IMG/VR virus record: IMGVR_UViG_3300045996_002476
Span: 1-47,869 of that record
Length of the DNA stretch: 47,869 bases
From: a virus
Reading direction: 5' to 3' (one strand)
Part shown: piece by piece, positions 791-46,351 of the stretch
Numbering within the stretch: position 1 is the stretch's first letter
Layout: each line of letters begins with the position of its first letter
The notes under the pieces: model-generated
Database searches by the model: none
Told to the model about the DNA's origin: nothing
The model's input: only the letters and a program-made list of their open reading frames with translations
Made by a program: the position numbers and the translations under genes

Positions 791-1084
791 TCAGCTCCTG
801 TTCTTGGGGCGGTGGTACGGCGCCAGGCGTTCCGCCTCCTGTGCTCGCTTCGAGAGGTGGGCGCGATCGCGCCGCTCATGCTCGAGGAACGTCCTCAGCG
901 TGCGCGGCCCGTTCTTCGCCGTCGGGGTCTCCTGCATGTACGCGGCACAGCGCGCCGCGACCTCGAGGACATCAACATCCCCGAAGTCAGCGACGCACTG
1001 CGCCACAAGACGAGGGTCCCAATGGACGCCGGGCACGCGCTCCACAAGTAGAGCGCGCACCTCGATGCCCGACGGGAGCGTCAC
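791..1084 (-). CDS. Hypothetical protein, 97 aa, possible replication accessory
   Basis: Starts at a GTG overlapping the ParB-like gene's TGA (GTGA, four bases). The protein is mostly helical: a middle segment with VLEVAARCAAYMQ is followed by PRTLRTFLEHE and an Arg/Glu-rich tail. That arrangement recalls the C-terminal helical part of phage replication-initiation or DnaD-like proteins, but the resemblance is too weak to name it. It lies between the ParB-like protein and the helicase-loader pair in one minus-strand transcription unit, which supports a replication role by context only. Confidence 0.75.
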   Translation of the reverse strand: MTLPSGIEVRALLVERVPGVHWDPRLVAQCVADFGDVDVLEVAARCAAYMQETPTAKNGPRTLRTFLEHERRDRAHLSKRAQEAERLAPYHRPKNRS

Positions 1085-2769
1085 TCGGCCTCGGCCACCT
1101 CATCGGCGGCCGGGTCCGCGTCCTCCTCGCCCGAGCCGGACGTTTCGCCCTCCAGGCCCTCATCGGGCGAGTCGGGGTCCGGGTCCGGCTCGTAGCCACC
1201 GAAGCCCACGCCGGCGAGCTGGCGTGCGCGTTCGACGGCCTGCTCGAACAGACTCTTCGGCAGCGCCTTCTTGAGCAGCTTCTCGAGCTCGCTCTCGATG
1301 ACCTCCTTCGAGTCCGAAGTCGCCTGGTAGCCCGACGTCACGACCCCCTGGCCGCGGCGGTTCGACATCGCCACGCAGCGGTGGTCGGCGTACTCGGCCG
1401 CGAGCAGGACGATGAACAGCCGCGCGAAGATCTCGTCGGTCTTGCGCGCCCCGTTCATCCAGTCGTCGAGCAGCGTCTGCAGCTCGTTCGACTCGACGTA
1501 GCGGGTGACCTTCTTCGACTCCGGGTCCTTCCCGTTCGGGTGGATGTACCGGAGCCCGCGGGCCGCGAAGTCCGTCCCGTGCTCGACGAGCACCAGGCGG
1601 GACAGCAGCCGCGCCAGCGGCGCCGTGATCTCGATCGACGGGAGCCGGCCGATCATCGCGATCCCGAGCGCCTCGTTGAACGACTCGGCGTCCTGGCGCT
1701 CCTGAATCTCGGCCTTGTAGCGCTCCTTGCGGATGCGGGTCTTCTCGTCGTCATCGACGACAGCCTCGCCTTCGGCGTTGACCACGACCCGCGAGCTCGA
1801 GCCGCCGGTGTCGCGCCAGGGCTCGTCCTTGTCCCGCTCTGCGAGGCGCTCCTCCCGCTCCTTGAGCAGCCGGACGAGATAGTCCCCGGCGACCTGGCAG
1901 CAGGCGTCCCAGCCGATGATCAGCTTGCCGTCGACGAGCTGCACCGTCGCCGAGATGGAGTCGGCGTCCTTGACGACCTCGTCCGAGACGCGGACATAGG
2001 TCGGCCCGTACGCGTTCTCCGACAGGGTGGTGCGCGCGTCGTGGGCCTCCTCGGTCAGCAGGAACGCCGCCGCGTCGTACTGTGACCCCTCCGCCATCAG
2101 CGGAAACAGCTTCGACACCTGGAACGGCGCCAGCCGCTTGCACGGCTCCTTGCCGAAGTCCTTGCGGACCTCCTCCGACTGGCCGGCCAGGTACTTCGCG
2201 ATCTCCCCGGCGACGTCGGGCGACGCCGCGGCGATCGTGACGAGCGCCTTGCGGCCCTTGTCGTTCAGCTCCGCGGCCGCGTCGATCGCGTCCTCCGGCA
2301 GCACAAGCAGCTGCATCCGGCGGGTGACACGACCCTGCGGCAACCCGACCGCCGTGGCGATCCGCTGCGCGTTCCAGCCGTGCTCCTCCTTCAGCCGCCC
2401 GTACGCCTTGACCTCATCCGCGATGGAGAGATCCTCCCTCTGGATGTTCTCGACGAGCGCGTCGACGGTGCGCTCACCGGCGTCCGCGGCACGCCCATTG
2501 GTCACGATGCACGGGACGAGCTCCAGCGAGCCCTGGCAGGCGCGCAGGCGGCGCTCGCCGGTGACGAGCACGTAGCCGTCGTACGGCTCGTCCTCGAGCG
2601 GCAGACGGACGGTCAGCGGCTGCAGCAGCCCGCGCTCGCGGATCGAGGCGGCGAGCTCCTCGATCGCCTTCACCTCGAACTGCGTGCGCGGGTTGAAGTC
2701 CGTTTCGACCTTGATCTGGTCGATCGGCACGAGCTGAACATCAGGCAGTGTTGATTCGGTCATCGGCAA
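1081..2769 (-). CDS. ParB/Spo0J-like nuclease-domain protein, 562 aa
   Basis: The N-terminus is a classic ParB/sulfiredoxin-fold domain: FNPRTQFEVKAIEELAASI at about residues 26-44, then VTGERRLRAC at about 68-77. A helix-turn-helix segment follows, with GWNAQRIATAVGLPQGRVTRR at about residues 130-150. The middle is a long novel region. The last 40 residues are very acidic (Asp, Glu, Pro). At 562 residues it is about twice a chromosomal ParB. No ParA is present anywhere in the circle, so a plain partition role is doubtful; DNA binding, transcription control or nuclease activity are alternatives. The start ATG is preceded by GAAAGG sitting in a small GGA/TCC hairpin. It is first in the minus-strand replication operon. 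Confidence 0.85.
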   Translation of the reverse strand: MPMTESTLPDVQLVPIDQIKVETDFNPRTQFEVKAIEELAASIRERGLLQPLTVRLPLEDEPYDGYVLVTGERRLRACQGSLELVPCIVTNGRAADAGERTVDALVENIQREDLSIADEVKAYGRLKEEHGWNAQRIATAVGLPQGRVTRRMQLLVLPEDAIDAAAELNDKGRKALVTIAAASPDVAGEIAKYLAGQSEEVRKDFGKEPCKRLAPFQVSKLFPLMAEGSQYDAAAFLLTEEAHDARTTLSENAYGPTYVRVSDEVVKDADSISATVQLVDGKLIIGWDACCQVAGDYLVRLLKEREERLAERDKDEPWRDTGGSSSRVVVNAEGEAVVDDDEKTRIRKERYKAEIQERQDAESFNEALGIAMIGRLPSIEITAPLARLLSRLVLVEHGTDFAARGLRYIHPNGKDPESKKVTRYVESNELQTLLDDWMNGARKTDEIFARLFIVLLAAEYADHRCVAMSNRRGQGVVTSGYQATSDSKEVIESELEKLLKKALPKSLFEQAVERARQLAGVGFGGYEPDPDPDSPDEGLEGETSGSGEEDADPAADEVAEAE

Positions 2770-12174: not shown

Positions 12175-12448
12175 CCTGCCCCTCCTCGTGTTCGGGTGTG
12201 ATGTCGTCGACGAACGCCAGGTACTCCGTCATCGCGTCGACGAACTCGTTATGCGCGGCGATGAAGCCCATGTCTTCGGCGACATCGGACCACAGTTTGC
12301 CCTCGAGCGACCCGAGGGCGGCCGCGACCGGCAGCGCCGCGGCGACGACGTCTTCTAGGAGGTCATGCAGCGACGGCGGCGTCTCCGGGGTCGGGAACCC
12401 CGCCGCGTCCTGCTGCTGGCTCTGAGTCGTCGGGTCCTGGTCGGACAT
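12083..12448 (-). CDS. Hypothetical protein, 121 aa
   Basis: The core (LHDLLEDVVAAALPVAAALG to YLAFVDDITPEHEE) looks like a real helical domain. The N-terminal 28 residues overlap the end of the ardC-type gene and the C-terminal 30 overlap the start of the next gene, and both flanks are low-complexity. Ribosome-binding site weak (GAGG, 12 bases). Function unknown. Confidence 0.65.
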   Translation of the reverse strand: MSDQDPTTQSQQQDAAGFPTPETPPSLHDLLEDVVAAALPVAAALGSLEGKLWSDVAEDMGFIAAHNEFVDAMTEYLAFVDDITPEHEEGQDDRGEADSAGGHAGGAKPAADVHGGEPAAG

Positions 12449-13319
12449 GGGCGAGCGCGTCCTCGATTGCCTGCGTGACGTCGAGCACCCTGCCAGCCAC
12501 CGCGGACAGAGCCTTGCCGGGGTCCTCGATGTCTTTCGTCCAGTGCGCAACGTAGTACGCCGACGTGTCCGTCGTGTCGATGCCGAGGCTGTCGCAGACC
12601 ATGAACGCCGACGACTCCGCGACCAGCTCCCCGATCGCGTAGTCCGTCACCTTGCCGGGCAGATGCCGGTCGACGTGGTGCGCGAGCTCGTGCACGAGCA
12701 CTTCGACGCGCTGCGCGCCGCCGATGCCGGCGGCGATCCAGATCAGCTGCTTGCCCGGATCGTAGACACCCTTCGCTCCGGGCGGGGCTTCGGGCGGCAT
12801 CATGCCGATGACGTCTTCTACGCCGAGGTCGCAGGCCGCCTTGGCGAGGTCGGCGAACAGGTCGGGGTCGCTGTCGGCGTCCAGCTCGGGCCAGCGGCCG
12901 GGCGCCTCGAGCGGCTGCGCCTTCCCCTCGATCGGCTCCGTCTGGGAGATGTCGAACACCGCCGCCCCACGGAACCGCATCCTGATTTCCTCGCCGTTTT
13001 GCTTCGCCTCGGCGAGCTGCTTCTTCGACGGCTTGCACGGCGCGAGAATGTAGATCGCGGTGCCCTTCCCGCTCGCCACCTGATAGCCCAGCCGCTGCCA
13101 CTGCCGGTAGCCCGCGACGCGGGTGCAGTGCTCGGCCGTCGGCGCGAGGGTGCCGTCAGGCAGCCGCCGGTGCGGCTGCTGCGTCGCTATCAGGATCTGA
13201 TTCCTGAAGCTGTAGGTGTGGAACGCCCGGCGGGTCTTCAACCAGCGCTGCCACTCGCCGCTCGAACTCAGCGAGAGCACCGCTTGATTGAGCGTGTCGA
13301 GCACGTTCGATTTCTGCAT
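12363..13319 (-). CDS. ardC: ArdC-type antirestriction protein with metallopeptidase domain
   Basis: 318 residues. The N-terminal ssDNA-binding ArdC domain is clear: WLKTRRAFHTYSFRNQILI at about residues 25-43, then YRQWQRLGYQVASGKGTAIY near 71-90 and GAAVFDISQTEP near 118. The C-terminal domain has VLVHELAHHVDRH near 211 and ELVAESSAF near 231, the HExxH zincin site and its third ligand. ArdC proteins protect incoming DNA from restriction enzymes, and some virion-associated ones enter with the DNA. GGAGGAG lies two bases before the ATG, so initiation is independent even though the first 164 bases overlap the upstream gene. Length is typical. Confidence 0.9.
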   Translation of the reverse strand: MQKSNVLDTLNQAVLSLSSSGEWQRWLKTRRAFHTYSFRNQILIATQQPHRRLPDGTLAPTAEHCTRVAGYRQWQRLGYQVASGKGTAIYILAPCKPSKKQLAEAKQNGEEIRMRFRGAAVFDISQTEPIEGKAQPLEAPGRWPELDADSDPDLFADLAKAACDLGVEDVIGMMPPEAPPGAKGVYDPGKQLIWIAAGIGGAQRVEVLVHELAHHVDRHLPGKVTDYAIGELVAESSAFMVCDSLGIDTTDTSAYYVAHWTKDIEDPGKALSAVAGRVLDVTQAIEDALAHVRPGPDDSEPAAGRGGVPDPGDAAVAA

Positions 13320-14650: not shown

Positions 14651-16258
14651 GTGGGCGCACCCTTCCGTCCGCGGCGGCGCCCAAGCTTCCGGGCCCGCAT
14701 CGCAATTCCTCCCGCCCTCGTGAAAGGCCGCCCCTCGAGGCGGCCTTTCACATTGAGGTTCACGCCCAACATCGAGAAGCGGCTCGCCGAGCTCTCCCCC
14801 GGGGAGCGGCTGAAGGCGCAGGAGCTGCTGCAGGGCTACCAGAAGCTGCGGGCGCAGAACCCGGTGCTGTTCTACGTGCCGACGGGGCCGCAGACCGAGC
14901 TGCACGAGTCCGAGGCGAAGATCCGGGCGTTCATGGGCGGCAACCGCGCCGGCAAGACCACCGGCGGGCTCGTCGACGACCTCATCCAGGCGGCCCCCAG
15001 GGAGCTGCTGCCGGACCACCTGGTGCCGTACAAGCGCTGGGAGTGCCCGTTCTACTGCCGCATCATCGTGCCGGACTTCAAGCTGGCGCTACACCAGGTC
15101 GTCATCCAGAAGCTGCGTGACTGGACGCCGAAGGAAATGCTGCGAAACGGCCTGTTCGACGCCTCCTACGACAAGGGTCACGAGTGCCTGCGTTTCGAGT
15201 GCGGATGCCGCTTTGACTTCATGTCGTTCGAGCAGGACGTCGACAAGTTCGGCGGCGCGGCGCTCCACCGATGCCATTACGACGAGGAGCCGCCAGAGGA
15301 CATCCGGGAGGAGTGTCAGATGCGACTCATCGACTTCGACGGCGATGAGCTGTTCACGATGACGCCGCTGCAAGGCATGTCGTGGATGTTCGACGCGATC
15401 TTCGAGGCCGCCAAGTCGGACCCGGACATCGACGTCGTGCTGTCCGACATGGACGACAATCCCCACCTTGCCGAGGGCGGCAAGAAGCGCGCGCTCAAGG
15501 GCTTGTCCGAAGAGAAAGTCCAGGCCCGCAAGAAGGGCGTGATGGTGCACTTCGAGGGCATGGTGTACCCGCGCTTCGAGGAGGCGAAGGTCCTGCCCCC
15601 CGACCGCCGGCTTGTGGGGAGCCTGGAGGTAGTCGTGGGGATCGACCCGGGCGTCCGAGAAGCGGGCGTCGTCTTCGTTGGCTTCGATCGCGATAACGCA
15701 GCGATCGTGTTCGACGAGCTCGAGATTCATGACGCGGAGACCTCCGTCATCTGCGACCGGATCCGCAAGAAGCTGAAGGAGTGGGACCTCGACGAACGCA
15801 AGGTGCAGTTCGTGATCGACCCGGCCGCCAGGCAGCGGACGCTGACGACCGCGGTGTCAGTCGAGACGTCGTACCACATGAACGGCATCTATCCCGCGCA
15901 CGGCCAGAACGACCGTGAGGGCGGTATCGAGATCATCGAGGACCGCATCGCCCAGAACTTCCTGCAGGTGTCGACGATGTGCAACGGGCTGCTGTGGGAA
16001 GCCGCCCGCTACAGGCGGAAGTTCCACGAGGAGTCCGGCAAATGGGACGTCGTCAAGCGGCACGACCACAAGCTGGACGCGCTCCGGTACGCGATCTGCC
16101 ACCGCCCCTGGGAGGTGACGGGCCAGCTGTCCGCCGGAGAAGAATCGGCGCAGCGCCGCCAGGAACGCCGCGACTCGTGGAAGACGAACCCGGACCATGC
16201 GTTCCCGCCCCAGGCCACCAACCGCCGGCGGCCCAGGGCGAGCGCGCACGCGATCTAG
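14651..16258 (+). CDS. terL: Terminase large subunit
   Basis: ATP-driven DNA packaging motor and nuclease. Walker A is GGNRAGKTT at about residues 95-103, Walker B with catalytic acids is YDEEPP near 211, and the RNase H-like nuclease begins at VVGIDPG near 329 with later acidic residues (FVIDPAA near 393 and HDHKLDALRY near 472). Length (535) is typical. The start is uncertain: GTG at 14651 is given, but the first 34 residues are basic and unlike the family, GTG 14720 lies in a hairpin, and TTG 14753 just after that hairpin would give LRFTPNIEKRLAEL. First gene of the plus-strand late region. Confidence 0.93.
   Translation: MGAPFRPRRRPSFRARIAIPPALVKGRPSRRPFTLRFTPNIEKRLAELSPGERLKAQELLQGYQKLRAQNPVLFYVPTGPQTELHESEAKIRAFMGGNRAGKTTGGLVDDLIQAAPRELLPDHLVPYKRWECPFYCRIIVPDFKLALHQVVIQKLRDWTPKEMLRNGLFDASYDKGHECLRFECGCRFDFMSFEQDVDKFGGAALHRCHYDEEPPEDIREECQMRLIDFDGDELFTMTPLQGMSWMFDAIFEAAKSDPDIDVVLSDMDDNPHLAEGGKKRALKGLSEEKVQARKKGVMVHFEGMVYPRFEEAKVLPPDRRLVGSLEVVVGIDPGVREAGVVFVGFDRDNAAIVFDELEIHDAETSVICDRIRKKLKEWDLDERKVQFVIDPAARQRTLTTAVSVETSYHMNGIYPAHGQNDREGGIEIIEDRIAQNFLQVSTMCNGLLWEAARYRRKFHEESGKWDVVKRHDHKLDALRYAICHRPWEVTGQLSAGEESAQRRQERRDSWKTNPDHAFPPQATNRRRPRASAHAI
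14720..14751. other. Very strong hairpin at the 5' end of terL
   Basis: A perfect 13-bp inverted repeat (GTGAAAGGCCGCC with GGCGGCCTTTCAC) with a 6-base loop. Inside the longest terL frame but possibly upstream of the true start. It looks like a terminator or an mRNA stabiliser/processing site. Confidence 0.75.
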
Positions 16259-16617
16259 ACGGGGGCGCCGTCCGGCCGCTGCATGTCGGCGGCCTGGCGC
16301 TGCGCCGCGTCGACCTGATTGTCGGTCGCACGCGCCAGCGCGGCGTTCGCCCAGAACATCGCTTCCTCGAGCTTGGTGAGAGCGAGGGACTTCTCCCTCC
16401 CGTCCGGCAGCACCTCCACCAGCTGGCGGGCGGCGTCGCCGGTGATCTGCCTCACGGTGCCGTGGGCGGCCTGCTTCTCCTCGGTGCTCGCCCGGTGGAA
16501 GGCGAAGCGGTGATCGACCTCGAGGCGTTCGCGATCGCGGGCTGTCATCAACTTCCCGCGATTTCCGGCGTTGCGCTCCTGCGCGGGCGACGGCCGGGAC
16601 GTGGTCTGGGGCGGCAA
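16255..16617 (-). CDS. Acb2/Tad1-hairpin-domain protein, candidate anti-CBASS sponge
   Basis: 120 residues. The core HRFAFHRASTEEKQAAHGTV leads to VLPDGREKSLALTKLEEAMF and WANAALARA, the hallmark helical hairpin of Acb2/Tad1-type proteins. Characterised Acb2 proteins assemble as hexamers and sequester cyclic oligonucleotides made by CBASS; Tad1 relatives bind the Thoeris messenger. The ligand of this one is not known. The N-terminal 23 residues are a polar extension. A TTG start at 16617 is chosen because GAAGGGAG lies 6 bases upstream; the ATG at 16548 would give the bare domain but has a crowded ribosome site. It is transcribed against the surrounding structural genes and overlaps the terL stop by four bases, as expected for a moron gene. 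Confidence 0.8.
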   Translation of the reverse strand: MPPQTTSRPSPAQERNAGNRGKLMTARDRERLEVDHRFAFHRASTEEKQAAHGTVRQITGDAARQLVEVLPDGREKSLALTKLEEAMFWANAALARATDNQVDAAQRQAADMQRPDGAPV

Positions 16618-16703
16618 GGCGAGCTCCCTTCGTAGCTGTATCCGTCCGCTGGGCAGCGTACAAGACCATCCAGAGAGCTCGCCGCGATCGACCAGGAGAC
16701 GAC

Positions 16704-17033
16704 ATGGCCCACACCGTCAGTCAGCGCGGCCGAGACAGCAGAGGCACCATCCACGAGTGCCGCGCCACCATCACCTTCTCCGGCACCTACGCCGACGAGG
16801 GCGAGACGCTCGTGCCGGGCGACTACGGCTTCGCTGAGATCCACGACGTGATCGTGCACGGCCTGGCGATGGCTTCCGACGAGGAGACGGCGATCCCCGT
16901 CTCGTGGGACCGCACGTCCGGCAAGCTGATCGCGTTCGAGGGCTCCGCCGCGGGCACCGCCCTGACGGAGAAGACGGCGGCCGAGGCGTACCCGACCGGC
17001 TGCTACGTCGACGTCACGGTCCTCGGCCGGTAG
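16704..17033 (+). CDS. Small structural protein candidate, 109 aa
   Basis: CAGGAG precedes the ATG. The protein is strand-rich: a TITFSGTYADEGETLVPGDYG segment, then HDVIVHGLAMASDEETAIPV and a C-terminal YVDVTVLG. It resembles small head-decoration or neck proteins in size and position, between terL and the portal, but I cannot name a family. Confidence 0.75.
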   Translation: MAHTVSQRGRDSRGTIHECRATITFSGTYADEGETLVPGDYGFAEIHDVIVHGLAMASDEETAIPVSWDRTSGKLIAFEGSAAGTALTEKTAAEAYPTGCYVDVTVLGR

Positions 17034-43555: not shown

Positions 43556-44002
43556 TCAGGATTCCCCCCTCGGGATCCTCGCGAGCTTAGAGTCGATGTA
43601 CGCGACCGGCTCCACAAGGTCGTTATCGGCAGCAAACTTGCGAAGCTCAAGCAGCCGGTCGACGAACCCCGACTGCAGCGTCTCCCGCAGGTCTTTGTGG
43701 CGGTCGAGCTCGTCCTCGGCGGCCGCCAGGGCGACCGTGTCGTCGACGTCGGCGCACGCGTCGATCGACGCGGCCTCCTGCGCGAGCAGCTCGCGCGCCA
43801 GGCCGGTAGCGAAGCGCTGCAGGTCCCGCCACATCGTGCGGAACCGCTCCGCCGCCCAGCGGCGCCTGAGCGCCCCGCAGGTGCACTCCTGGCCGTAGGG
43901 CAGCACCGCCGGGCAGGTCGGGCGGTGCGAGGTGCTCATGTACGGGGCGGTGACCTCGGCGACCTCGAGGCGCTCCCGGTCGGCGGTGATCTGGCCGCTC
44001 AT
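43556..44002 (-). CDS. Hypothetical protein, 148 aa
   Basis: ATGA overlap with the exonuclease stop. N-terminal HRPTCPAVLPYGQECTCGAL has three Cys that may bind metal. The rest is helical with an acidic patch (ACADVDDTVALAAAEDELDR). By position it may assist the exonuclease. Confidence 0.7.
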   Translation of the reverse strand: MSGQITADRERLEVAEVTAPYMSTSHRPTCPAVLPYGQECTCGALRRRWAAERFRTMWRDLQRFATGLARELLAQEAASIDACADVDDTVALAAAEDELDRHKDLRETLQSGFVDRLLELRKFAADNDLVEPVAYIDSKLARIPRGES

Positions 44003-44922
44003 CGCTTCCTGCGCTTCCCGGACTTGTTGCGCCGCTTCGCGATCTCGTCAAGGAACGGCTCGTGCTCCCACCACAGCCGCACCGCGGCAAGCCAGCGGGC
44101 GTCGGGGCACAGGTGCGTCTCGCGCAGGTAGATCCCCGAGTTGTGCAACACCACCGTGCTCGAGCGCACCGCCCGCGGCGCGTCCTTCTGCCACTGGCGC
44201 AGCTCGTTGTACGCCAGCTTGTAGCCGCAGCCCTGCAGGTGGAACTTGTCGTACACCTGGGGGCCCTTCGAACGGGCCGACGTCTTGTAGTCGACGACCT
44301 CGACGCCGGGGGCGTCCGCTTCGTCATCCCAGCACTCGACGCCGGTGTCTATCCGGCCCGCGTAACGATGCTCACGGGACCCCACGATGATCTCGTTGAA
44401 CAGCACTTCGGGGTCCATGTCGACGAACCACTTGGAGAACGCCTGGATGTAGCCGCGCAGCTCCGGGTCGAAGTCCGAGAGACGTGGCGGTGCGCCTGTC
44501 GCGCCCATCGTCTCCAGCGCATGATGGATCGCCGTACCTTCGTCACCGCGCTCCTCCTTGACGTGGTTCACGGTCAGCTTGCCGGCGGTCAACAGCTTCT
44601 CCAGCGTCTCGTCGGCGCCGGAACGGATCGCGTCGGGGTCGAGCGACTGCAGCATCCCGTAGGACAGCTGCCCGGTCGCCATCAGGTCGATCAGGCCGGC
44701 CATCCCGACGCGCATCCCCCACCACGGGCCTGCCTCGAACGGGTCCTGCAGCTTGATGATCTGCGTCACCGACGGGACGAACTGGCCGTCGATCGTGTAG
44801 CGGTGCTTCTCCTCCTCGAACGTCAGAGTCGGGGGCCGCTTCTTCTTCTGCTTCAGGCCCTCCTCGAGGGCGGCGTTCACGGCCGCGGCCTCAGGGCCGA
44901 AGATCTGTTGCGCGTCTCCCAC
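43999..44922 (-). CDS. Cas4/RecB-like PD-(D/E)XK exonuclease
   Basis: 307 residues from a GTG with GAAAGG 7 bases upstream. YAGRIDTGVE carries the catalytic Asp, and VEVVDYKTSARSK the E/D-x-K pair with a following Gln/Tyr helix (YDKFHLQGCGYKLAYNELRQ), the recB-nuclease pattern. HRYTIDGQFVPSVTQIIKLQ at the front is the 'H-x-Y ... PSVT' start seen in this phage exonuclease family. It would resect dsDNA ends for the ERF annealing protein encoded three genes upstream, giving a Red-like recombination pair. No Fe-S Cys cluster is evident. Confidence 0.88.
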   Translation of the reverse strand: MGDAQQIFGPEAAAVNAALEEGLKQKKKRPPTLTFEEEKHRYTIDGQFVPSVTQIIKLQDPFEAGPWWGMRVGMAGLIDLMATGQLSYGMLQSLDPDAIRSGADETLEKLLTAGKLTVNHVKEERGDEGTAIHHALETMGATGAPPRLSDFDPELRGYIQAFSKWFVDMDPEVLFNEIIVGSREHRYAGRIDTGVECWDDEADAPGVEVVDYKTSARSKGPQVYDKFHLQGCGYKLAYNELRQWQKDAPRAVRSSTVVLHNSGIYLRETHLCPDARWLAAVRLWWEHEPFLDEIAKRRNKSGKRRKR

Positions 44923-44988
44923 GAGCGAGCCTTTCTATCCGTGCGGGCGAATACAACTGGGGGGCGTCAATCGGCCAGAGCCAGAGCC

Positions 44989-45031
44989 GACCCGCCGCGA
45001 CCGCCTTAGGGGGCAAGGATCGCGGCGGGTC
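44989..45031 (-). terminator. Terminator-like hairpin between ERF unit and exonuclease
   Basis: Perfect 12-bp stem (GACCCGCCGCGA with TCGCGGCGGGTC) with a 19-base loop that itself pairs CCTT/AAGG. It follows the 95-residue gene by 16 bases, so it probably ends or attenuates the ERF transcript before the exonuclease gene. Confidence 0.7.
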
Positions 45032-45047
45032 GAGCTGCTTCAGAGCC

Positions 45048-45335
45048 TCACTCAGTGGGCTCGGCGTCCCCCTCGGCCACGGGGGTAGACGGCTCGTCGA
45101 GGTTGGTGACGACCTCGCACTTGGCGCGCACGAACAGGATCACACCCTCGCCGGTGAGAGTGCCCTGCGCGACCGGATCTGGCTGCCCAGGGTTGTAGGC
45201 GCGGAACTGCCAGCGCGACGCGCCGGTCGAATCACGGGTCAGCTGCACCCACGAATCATCGTCGTAGGTGAGCAGCGCGTGATCGGCGGCGTTGATGCGC
45301 TCGGCCTTCTCGAGCGCGTACGTCGGGGGTGTCAC
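45048..45335 (-). CDS. Hypothetical protein, 95 aa
   Basis: GTGA overlap. Strand-rich centre: ALLTYDDDSWVQLTRDSTGA, RWQFRAYNPGQPD, VAQGTLTGEGVILFVRAKCE, a small beta-sandwich look, then an acidic tail. Function unknown; in the ERF unit. Confidence 0.7.
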   Translation of the reverse strand: MTPPTYALEKAERINAADHALLTYDDDSWVQLTRDSTGASRWQFRAYNPGQPDPVAQGTLTGEGVILFVRAKCEVVTNLDEPSTPVAEGDAEPTE

Positions 45336-45586
45336 TTGTTGACCTCCTTGAGGGCTTGCAGCAACAGCGCTGTAGCGTCCCAGGAGGGCAGGTCAGACCC
45401 GCCGGCGTCCATCTCGATGTGCGCGACGGCACGGGACTCGGGGCCGACCAGCTCGCCGACAATGACCAGGCGTGTCAGCACCCGCTCAGAGTCCGGGCGC
45501 AGCCCGGATTCCGAGGCGCCCACGACTAGCACCGCTTCGATCTCTCGCAGGAGTGCCTCGCGGGCTTCTGGCGGCACCAACGCCAC
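45332..45586 (-). CDS. Hypothetical protein, 84 aa
   Basis: GTG three bases after the ERF stop; ribosome site weak. Helical start (PPEAREALLREIEAVLVV), then strand-like LVIVGELVGPESRAVAHIE. Possibly an accessory of the recombination module. Confidence 0.65.
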   Translation of the reverse strand: MALVPPEAREALLREIEAVLVVGASESGLRPDSERVLTRLVIVGELVGPESRAVAHIEMDAGGSDLPSWDATALLLQALKEVNK

Positions 45587-45589
45587 TGG

Positions 45590-46351
45590 CTAGCCCGCGT
45601 CGGTCGACAGCTGCGTCGCGTCGGGGGTCCCGGCGAGCTCCGCCTCGAGCCACTTGGCGAACGCGTCGCCCTGCTCCTTGGTCAGGTCCTCGACCTTCTC
45701 CACCCCGTGCGTCTGCAACGAGGCGAAGATCCGCTTCTGGTCGATGTGCCCGGCGTCGACGGCCGCCTTGGCGGTCTCGCGCAGAACCTTGACCTTCTGC
45801 GGCGACAGCTTGTCGTTCGTCTGCTGCCGCTGCCGGCCACCCTTGGGGCGGGAGGCGCCGCCGCCGGTGCCCTTCTGCTCGTGCTCCGCGCTCGAGGTGG
45901 AGTCGGCGTCGTCGACCTTGTCGGTCGGCACCCGAAAGAACTTCTGGTAGGCGTACTTCGACGCCATCGTGAGCGCCTTCGGGGACGCCTTGTCGGCCGA
46001 GTCGATCCCCTCCGCGGGGAAGTAGCCGACGCGCTCCTCGCCCTTGTCGTCACGGACGGTCAGCTTGCAGATGATCAGCGCCGCGTTCCCCTCCTTGACA
46101 TAGGAGTCGGGGAAATCCGGGGCGAGCCCGAAGTTGGTCGACAGGCCGGCTCGGTCGAGCAGCGGGCCGAGCACCGCGAAGATGCCGTGCTCCTGCATCA
46201 CGTCGTACTTGGTGCGGCCGAACTCGACGGTGCCGGTCTTGTCGACGGCGGACACGTTCGCCTGCACCCAGCGGATGCGCTCGTCGATCGTCGCGGCCGC
46301 CTTGGGCGGCTCCGCCCCGTTTTTCGCCTCGGTGGGCTTGGCCTGAGTCAT
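45590..46351 (-). CDS. erf: ERF-family single-strand annealing recombinase
   Basis: 253 residues. The ERF domain spans about residues 20-150: RIRWVQANVSAVDKTGTVEF, YDVMQEHGIFAVLGPLLDRA, LIICKLTVRDDKGEERVGYF and SPKALTMASKYAYQKFFRVP, the usual signature ending in a Lys-rich helix. The C-terminus is a Gly/Arg/Gln linker and a helical cap (KVLRETAKAAVDAGHIDQKR). It anneals complementary ssDNA and partners with the exonuclease and SSB. The start has AGAAGGGA 10 bases upstream in a small CAG/CTG hairpin. Confidence 0.92.
   Translation of the reverse strand: MTQAKPTEAKNGAEPPKAAATIDERIRWVQANVSAVDKTGTVEFGRTKYDVMQEHGIFAVLGPLLDRAGLSTNFGLAPDFPDSYVKEGNAALIICKLTVRDDKGEERVGYFPAEGIDSADKASPKALTMASKYAYQKFFRVPTDKVDDADSTSSAEHEQKGTGGGASRPKGGRQRQQTNDKLSPQKVKVLRETAKAAVDAGHIDQKRIFASLQTHGVEKVEDLTKEQGDAFAKWLEAELAGTPDATQLSTDAG

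What the first reader, a model, noticed from the sequence alone, without database searches (positions are those of the whole stretch)
16255..16617. Acb2/Tad1-like anti-CBASS candidate placed backwards in the late region
The REKSLALTKLEEAMFWANAAL signature is that of cyclic-oligonucleotide sponges. It is carried as a minus-strand moron wedged between terL and the first structural gene, with an N-terminal 23-residue extension and a TTG start. Few members from high-GC Gram-positive phages have a known ligand, so the messenger it binds is an open question.
Basis: partly seen in the sequence, partly recalled or inferred. Interest (0 to 1): 0.75.

Follow-up and report, generated by a model that had tools for sequence, protein, structure and literature searches.

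The report
Actinophage Acb2-type sponge gene, antisense-placed
An uncultured virus of (probably) actinobacteria carries a small gene of a known kind that most likely mops up the chemical alarm signals bacteria make on infection; the gene family is already recognised, and the only odd thing here is that the gene sits alone and backwards right behind a virus packaging gene.

Summary
The ORF is real. It scores 63 bits against Pfam PF24729 Acb2_Tad1_hairpin (cut-off 27, E 2.5e-17), has more than 120 relatives in IMG/VR and 420 phage records with a match, mostly actinophages, and is related to a solved 'Acb2 homolog 43'. It is best read as an Acb2-type cyclic-oligonucleotide sponge. The hexamer-interface alanines of T4 Acb2 are kept. 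Its cyclic-dinucleotide pocket is only partly kept: K23 becomes R56, but R79 and F82 become A92 and A95. The ligand is therefore open; I lean to cyclic trinucleotides.

The claimed 23-residue N-terminal extension is probably not translated: it lacks the codon signal and relatives start near M24. The gene does lie backwards between terL and the next gene, sharing a CTAG stop overlap with terL. A sister phage (terL 63% identical) has the empty site, so the gene is a mobile accessory. Genes of this family recur next to terL (7 of 15 testable records), but in the same orientation. Both neighbours are opposite in only 1 of 58 related loci by crude gene calling. Such genes are already annotated in actinophages. 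Verdict: ordinary new member of a known kind, with unusual placement.

The parts
16255..16548 (-). acb2-type gene, preferred reading: ATG start at 16548, 97 aa, stop TAG
   Evidence: Pfam PF24729 2.5e-17; codon score of core 0.35 against 0.44 for known genes; relatives start at the equivalent place
16549..16617 (-). open-frame extension from TTG (23 codons), probably not translated; preceded by GAAGGGAG
   Evidence: codon score -0.07; only 1.4% of in-frame windows as low; absent in relatives
16330..16497 (-). Acb2/Tad1 hairpin domain
   Evidence: the genome search PF24729 E 6.8e-19; AF2 helical hairpin with short N-terminal helix, mean pLDDT 86-88
16495..16509 (-). RFxFH motif (residues 37-41 of the TTG ORF); aligns near the base-stacking Tyr (Y8 in T4, Y11 in PaMx33)
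   Evidence: R37, F38, H41 invariant in 53 sequences; alignment to T4/PaMx33
16450..16452 (-). R56, at the position of K23 (T4) / K26 (PaMx33)
   Evidence: invariant; alignment; K23 contacts cGAMP in PMC10097602
16390..16401 (-). GREK turn (residues 73-76); R74 aligns with PaMx33 R67 and the Tad1 SRE arginine
   Evidence: R74/E75 invariant; R67 nearly invariant in canonical Acb2; alignments
16345..16383 (-). second hairpin helix, A79 to N91 (ALTKLEEAMFWAN); A79, A86, A90 match T4 hexamer-interface A66, A73, A77
   Evidence: alignment; interface residues from PMC10097602
16255..16258 (.). CTAG palindrome shared by the terL and acb2 stop codons (tail-to-tail overlap)
   Evidence: sequence
16549..16703 (.). 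divergent region between acb2 (ATG 16548) and the next + strand gene, with an inverted repeat 16618-16629 / 16672-16683; presumed promoter region
   Evidence: no consensus sigma-70 promoter found
14651..16258 (+). terminase large subunit, convergent neighbour
   Evidence: Terminase_6N 1.4e-5, phrog_2 1.9e-28
16704..17033 (+). divergent neighbour, 109 aa, unknown function, counterpart directly downstream of terL in sister phage L250
   Evidence: no family match; L250 counterpart

Best explanation
A phage accessory (moron) gene coding for an Acb2-type sponge. The protein folds as a short N-terminal helix plus a helical hairpin and assembles, presumably as a hexamer, through the same small-residue (Ala) faces as T4 Acb2. 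It binds a cyclic-oligonucleotide second messenger made by a host CD-NTase (CBASS) or a related signalling system and holds it away from its effector, so the infected cell does not kill itself. The cyclic-dinucleotide pocket is re-wired relative to T4 Acb2; the conserved GRE turn shared with PaMx33 Acb2 and Tad1 makes a cyclic trinucleotide the likelier main ligand. Being on the opposite strand with its own upstream region, it can be expressed independently of late terL transcription. Shown here: family membership, kept interface residues, partly changed pocket, moron status (empty site), orientation. Inferred: hexamer, ligand, CBASS target, timing.
For: PF24729 63.2 bits, E 2.5e-17. T4 Vs.4 and PaMx33 Acb2 hit the same Pfam model. 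PDB 'Acb2 homolog 43' 9ptq, six chains, E 1e-6, same LPxGREKSxxxTKLEEAMF signature. Tad1 structures hit by the profile at 2e-5. T4 interface A66/A73/A77 match A79/A86/A90, and helix cap T12 matches T45. R56 invariant at the K23/K26 position. AF2 shows short helix plus hairpin and no strands. Accessory behaviour: sister phage L250 has terL, then 70 nt, then the counterpart of the next gene, with no acb2. Family members sit by thyX, clpP, tRNAs, terL or genome ends in other phages.
Against: No binding data. T4 cGAMP contacts R79, F82 and H11 are not kept (A92, A95, S44). Direct profile comparison with canonical Acb2 (A5) is weak (hhalign probability 24%). Foldseek with the monomer does not single out Acb2 (7uq2 at rank 21 and rank 4, E 5.6 and 3.4), so the fold test is inconclusive. 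PADLOC has no match, as expected for a library of defence rather than anti-defence genes. Host and its defences are unknown.
Confidence: 0.75

Rival explanations
1. An Acb2-fold sponge whose main ligand is not a CBASS nucleotide but a Thoeris-type cyclic ADP-ribose or another messenger.
For: The profile matches Tad1 chains (2e-5) better than T4 or PaMx33 Acb2; shared RExxxALTxxEEAxxWxN with Tad1; T4 cyclic-dinucleotide contacts R79 and F82 absent. In Gordonia phage Octobien14 a relative lies about 2.4 kb from a nicotinamide phosphoribosyltransferase gene.
Against: No N-terminal beta domain as in Tad1, and the review places the gcADPR pocket between loops and helices of a two-domain protein (PMC12043709). 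The closest solved relative was named an Acb2 homolog by its depositors.
Confidence: 0.12
2. A packaging or head-module accessory protein rather than an anti-defence protein, because it recurs beside terL.
For: acb2 lies within about 1.1 kb of terL in 7 of 15 records where terL was found, and next to terL or between portal and capsid genes in several distant kin of this phage (L267, L265, L269).
Against: Many members are far from terL (8 of 15), beside thyX, clpP or tRNA genes. The closest terL kin L250-L255 have none within the flanks held. Same Pfam family as proven sponges.
Confidence: 0.06
3. A gene decaying or silenced: a former sponge no longer expressed because it sits antisense in the late region.
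For: Long end branch of the window protein (1.32); no consensus promoter found upstream.
Against: All subfamily-invariant residues are intact, no stop or frameshift, codon signal intact in the core.
Confidence: 0.05
4. Spurious antisense open frame.
For: High-GC genomes give many long antisense frames.
Against: Highly significant family match and codon signal on this strand only.
Confidence: 0.01

Closest known systems
phrog_1454 / PF24729 small proteins of actinophages (for example Mycobacterium phage StellaBean gp101 'cyclic nucleotide sequestering protein'; Microbacterium phage Statler, PMC13348362)
   Same: Same family (StellaBean and other tblastn relatives share the RFxFH - GREK - TKLEEAMFWAN signature), single hairpin domain
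   Different: Those inspected lie among same-strand genes; here a lone reversed gene convergent with terL; longer C-terminal tail (24 aa after the domain). The Statler sequence itself was not compared
Acb2 of T4 (Vs.4) and Pseudomonas phage PaMx33
   Same: PF24729, helical hairpin with N-terminal aromatic/basic residues, Ala interface positions; PaMx33 acb2 is also a minus-strand gene convergent with late genes
   Different: Shorter connection between the hairpin helices; T4 R79/F82/H11 pocket residues replaced; R96 one turn on could substitute (inference)
Tad1 (PDB 7uav and others)
   Same: Hairpin motif RExxxALTxxEEAxxWxN
   Different: Lacks the N-terminal beta-sheet domain
PDB 9ptq 'Acb2 homolog 43'
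   Same: LPxGREKSxxxTKLEEAMF signature, 76 aa, six chains in the entry
   Different: About half identical over the matched 43 residues; no paper found, ligand not known to me

Membership tests
Acb2_Tad1_hairpin (Pfam PF24729) | Score above curated cut-off (27 bits) over the hairpin domain | tested here: met
   63.2 bits, residues 41-96, profile 2-58 of 58
Acb2 (anti-CBASS 2) | Short N-terminal helix plus two long antiparallel helices, no beta domain | tested here: met
   AF2 secondary structure only, two models: H2-6, H15-38, H43-72 for the core, no strands, pLDDT 86
Acb2 (anti-CBASS 2) | Three-dimensional similarity to solved Acb2 by fold search | tested here: inconclusive
   7uq2 among hits but E 3.4-5.6, TM 0.27-0.42
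Acb2 (anti-CBASS 2) | Hexamer-interface small residues (T4 A66, A73, A77) | tested here: met
   A79, A86, A90. A86 and A90 lie in a search pattern, so their invariance among relatives is partly by construction; A79 is independent
Acb2 (anti-CBASS 2) | Cyclic-dinucleotide contacts of T4 (Y8, H11, K23, R79, F82) | tested here: inconclusive
   K23 to R56 kept in kind; Y8 to F40 or H41 (register uncertain by one); H11 to S44, R79 to A92, F82 to A95 changed. PaMx33 also lacks F82
Acb2 (anti-CBASS 2) | Hexamer in solution that binds cyclic di- or trinucleotides and inhibits CBASS | not testable with these tools
   needs protein
Tad1 | N-terminal beta-sheet domain before the hairpin | tested here: not met
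   no strands predicted; only about 17 residues precede the domain from ATG 16548

The most novel reading that the evidence does not exclude
The actinophage GREK/EEAMFWAN branch is a sponge class with its own messenger specificity (trinucleotide-only, or a messenger not yet described in actinobacteria), and its recurrent siting against terL, here as a convergent antisense gene sharing terL's stop codon, couples counter-defence to packaging-gene expression, for instance by antisense control of the terL transcript.
Probability: 0.15. Interest if true: 0.6.

Novelty: new member of a known kind. Interest (0 to 1): 0.3.

Why it matters
It extends the Acb2 sponge family to an uncultured phage lineage with no close cultured kin. 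It also shows by residue mapping that the large actinophage branch keeps the assembly surface but not the T4 dinucleotide pocket, so its ligand cannot be read off from T4. Testing one or two members of this branch would say what messenger many actinophages are evading. Two points were not in the papers I found: the enrichment beside terL, and the repeated appearance in the same head module at different places and orientations.

Tried and rejected
Foldseek of two AF2 monomers against the PDB: no useful hit, as a small helical hairpin is too simple. NCBIfam: no match. PADLOC: none. Papers on Acb2/CTN residues (Cell 2023, Mol Cell 2024, Nature 2024) are not held, so the role of PaMx33 R67 in trinucleotide binding rests on my memory and is not used as evidence. 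The 42-nt-spaced inverted repeat AGRGAGCTCGCC upstream of acb2 is not a phage-wide repeat (30 near matches against 23 expected). tblastn matches reaching into the 23-residue extension (for example Darrell) overlap the end of thyX or clpP and are taken as composition, not homology.

Full report
OBSERVATION. The minus-strand frame 16255-16617 starts with TTG, encodes 120 residues and contains GREKSLALTKLEEAMFWANAALAR. It matches Pfam PF24729 Acb2_Tad1_hairpin at 2.5e-17 with 63 bits against a cut-off of 27, phrog_1454 at 1.4e-25, and the PDB chain 9ptq 'Acb2 homolog 43' at 1e-6. The G+C of its codon positions (0.73/0.50/0.92) is that of the phage's real genes. It is the only such gene in the record, which is an IMG/VR virus record of 47,869 bases.

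START SITE. Sixty relatives from IMG/VR begin 2-17 residues before the conserved RFxFH motif. In the window the ATG at 16548 (residue 24) gives 13. In a codon-usage test the 23 codons between TTG and ATG score -0.07, against 0.44 +/- 0.20 for in-frame windows of this phage's genes (1.4% as low), while the core scores 0.35. The TTG has the better ribosome-binding site (GAAGGGAG, 6 nt), the ATG a weaker one (GGGAAG). I conclude that the extension is probably not translated and that the product is 97 aa. This is not proven.

FAMILY AND RESIDUES. There are 124 IMG/VR relatives and 420 phage records, mostly Mycobacterium, Gordonia, Streptomyces and Paenibacillus phages. In 53 aligned members R37, F38, H41, H52, R56, R74 and E75 are invariant, besides the EEAMFWAN stretch, which served as a search pattern and is therefore invariant partly by construction. 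Aligned with T4 Vs.4 and PaMx33 Acb2, the second helix fits without gaps (TKLxEAxxWA). The T4 hexamer-interface residues A66, A73, A77 fall on A79, A86, A90, and the helix-capping T12 on T45. Of the T4 cGAMP contacts (Y8, H11, K23, R79, F82; PMC10097602), K23 falls on R56, Y8 on F40 or H41 (register uncertain by one), but H11, R79 and F82 fall on S44, A92 and A95. R96, invariant here, is one helical turn beyond R79 and could replace it (inference). R74 in the GRE turn aligns with PaMx33 R67, nearly invariant in canonical Acb2, and with the arginine of Tad1's SRE. A review states that Acb2 and Tad1 share a trinucleotide site at the trimer channel, apart from the dinucleotide site (PMC12043709). 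My lean to a cyclic trinucleotide rests on this and is inference.

STRUCTURE. AF2 gives a short N-terminal helix and a long hairpin with high confidence (mean pLDDT 87.9 full length, 86.4 core) and no strands, so it is Acb2-like and lacks Tad1's beta domain. Foldseek against the PDB is uninformative for such a simple shape (T4 Vs.4 7uq2 at rank 21, E 5.6, and rank 4, E 3.4). Profile comparison with canonical Acb2 is weak on its own (24%); the common Pfam model carries the link.

PLACEMENT. terL (14651-16258 +) and acb2 end in the same palindrome CTAG, a 4-nt tail-to-tail overlap; upstream, acb2 diverges from the gene at 16704. No terminator-like hairpin lies at the junction; one weak candidate lies about 95 nt into terL (16161-16146 -). 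In 58 related loci with both neighbours callable, both neighbours run with acb2 in 48, and in 1 both run against it, by crude gene calling, so the lone reversed layout is unusual. Nearness to terL is not: of 34 records over 25 kb, terL was found in 15 and acb2 lies within about 1.1 kb of it in 7, always on the same strand; some of these may be related phages, so the count overstates independent events. The founding PaMx33 acb2 is itself a minus-strand gene convergent with the late genes.

ORIGIN. The phage has no close cultured kin. Its head proteins are 24-31% identical to Arthrobacter Jasminevirus, Cellulosimicrobium phage DS1, Microbacterium phage Shocker and an uncultured podovirus, and its best bacterial terL match is in a Solirubrobacterales MAG (33%), so an actinobacterial host is likely but not shown. 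A sister contig, L250 (terL 63%, portal 50% identical), has terL, 70 nt, then the counterpart of the 16704 gene (E 5e-4 plus synteny), against 445 nt in the window: an empty site. Distant terL kin carry acb2 genes in the same head module but elsewhere and on the same strand (L267 directly after terL; L265 and L269 between portal and capsid). In a poorly resolved tree the window protein groups with L002, L006, L019, L043 (94/91) and not with those. This points to repeated, independent acquisition.

KNOWN OR NEW. Actinophage members are already annotated as cyclic-nucleotide sequestering proteins (PMC11953737, which says the role in mycobacteriophages is unknown; PMC13348362; StellaBean). This is a new member of a known kind with unusual placement and an open ligand.

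Noticed in passing
IMG/VR loci L003, L011, L020, L024, L044, L055, L067 (also short contigs L016, L072): acb2-hairpin genes recur within about 1.1 kb of terL on the same strand (7 of 15 records with a detectable terL); possible moron hot spot at the start of the late region.
   Followed up: partly
L014:7026-8480 (+): An Acb2/Tad1 hairpin domain (residues 333-389, E 8e-19) embedded in a 485-aa continuous frame between an acidic linker and an RGRPRKDG tail; no counterpart of the whole protein in the phage collection. A possible fused sponge.
   Followed up: partly
window 12363-13319 (-): ArdC N-terminal domain plus zincin-like metallopeptidase: a second candidate counter-defence (anti-restriction) gene of this phage.
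   Followed up: no
window 1081-2769 (-): 562-aa ParB-like protein (ParB_N 1.4e-16).
   Followed up: no
window 43999-46351 (-): PD-(D/E)XK nuclease (43999-44922) and ERF recombinase (45590-46351): a recombination module.
   Followed up: no
L169 (Gordonia phage Octobien14) 55548-58257 of NC_060134: An acb2 relative about 2.4 kb from a nicotinamide phosphoribosyltransferase gene and next to a tRNA cluster; possible counter-defence neighbourhood against NAD-depleting or NAD-derived signals.
   Followed up: no
phage records KT361654, NC_028837, MG727698 and other Paenibacillus larvae phages: Acb2-hairpin relatives are annotated as 'phosphomannomutase', probably a misannotation.
   Followed up: no
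window 16618-16629 and 16672-16683: Inverted repeat AGRGAGCTCGCC in the divergent region upstream of acb2, not repeated elsewhere above chance; possible operator.
   Followed up: partly
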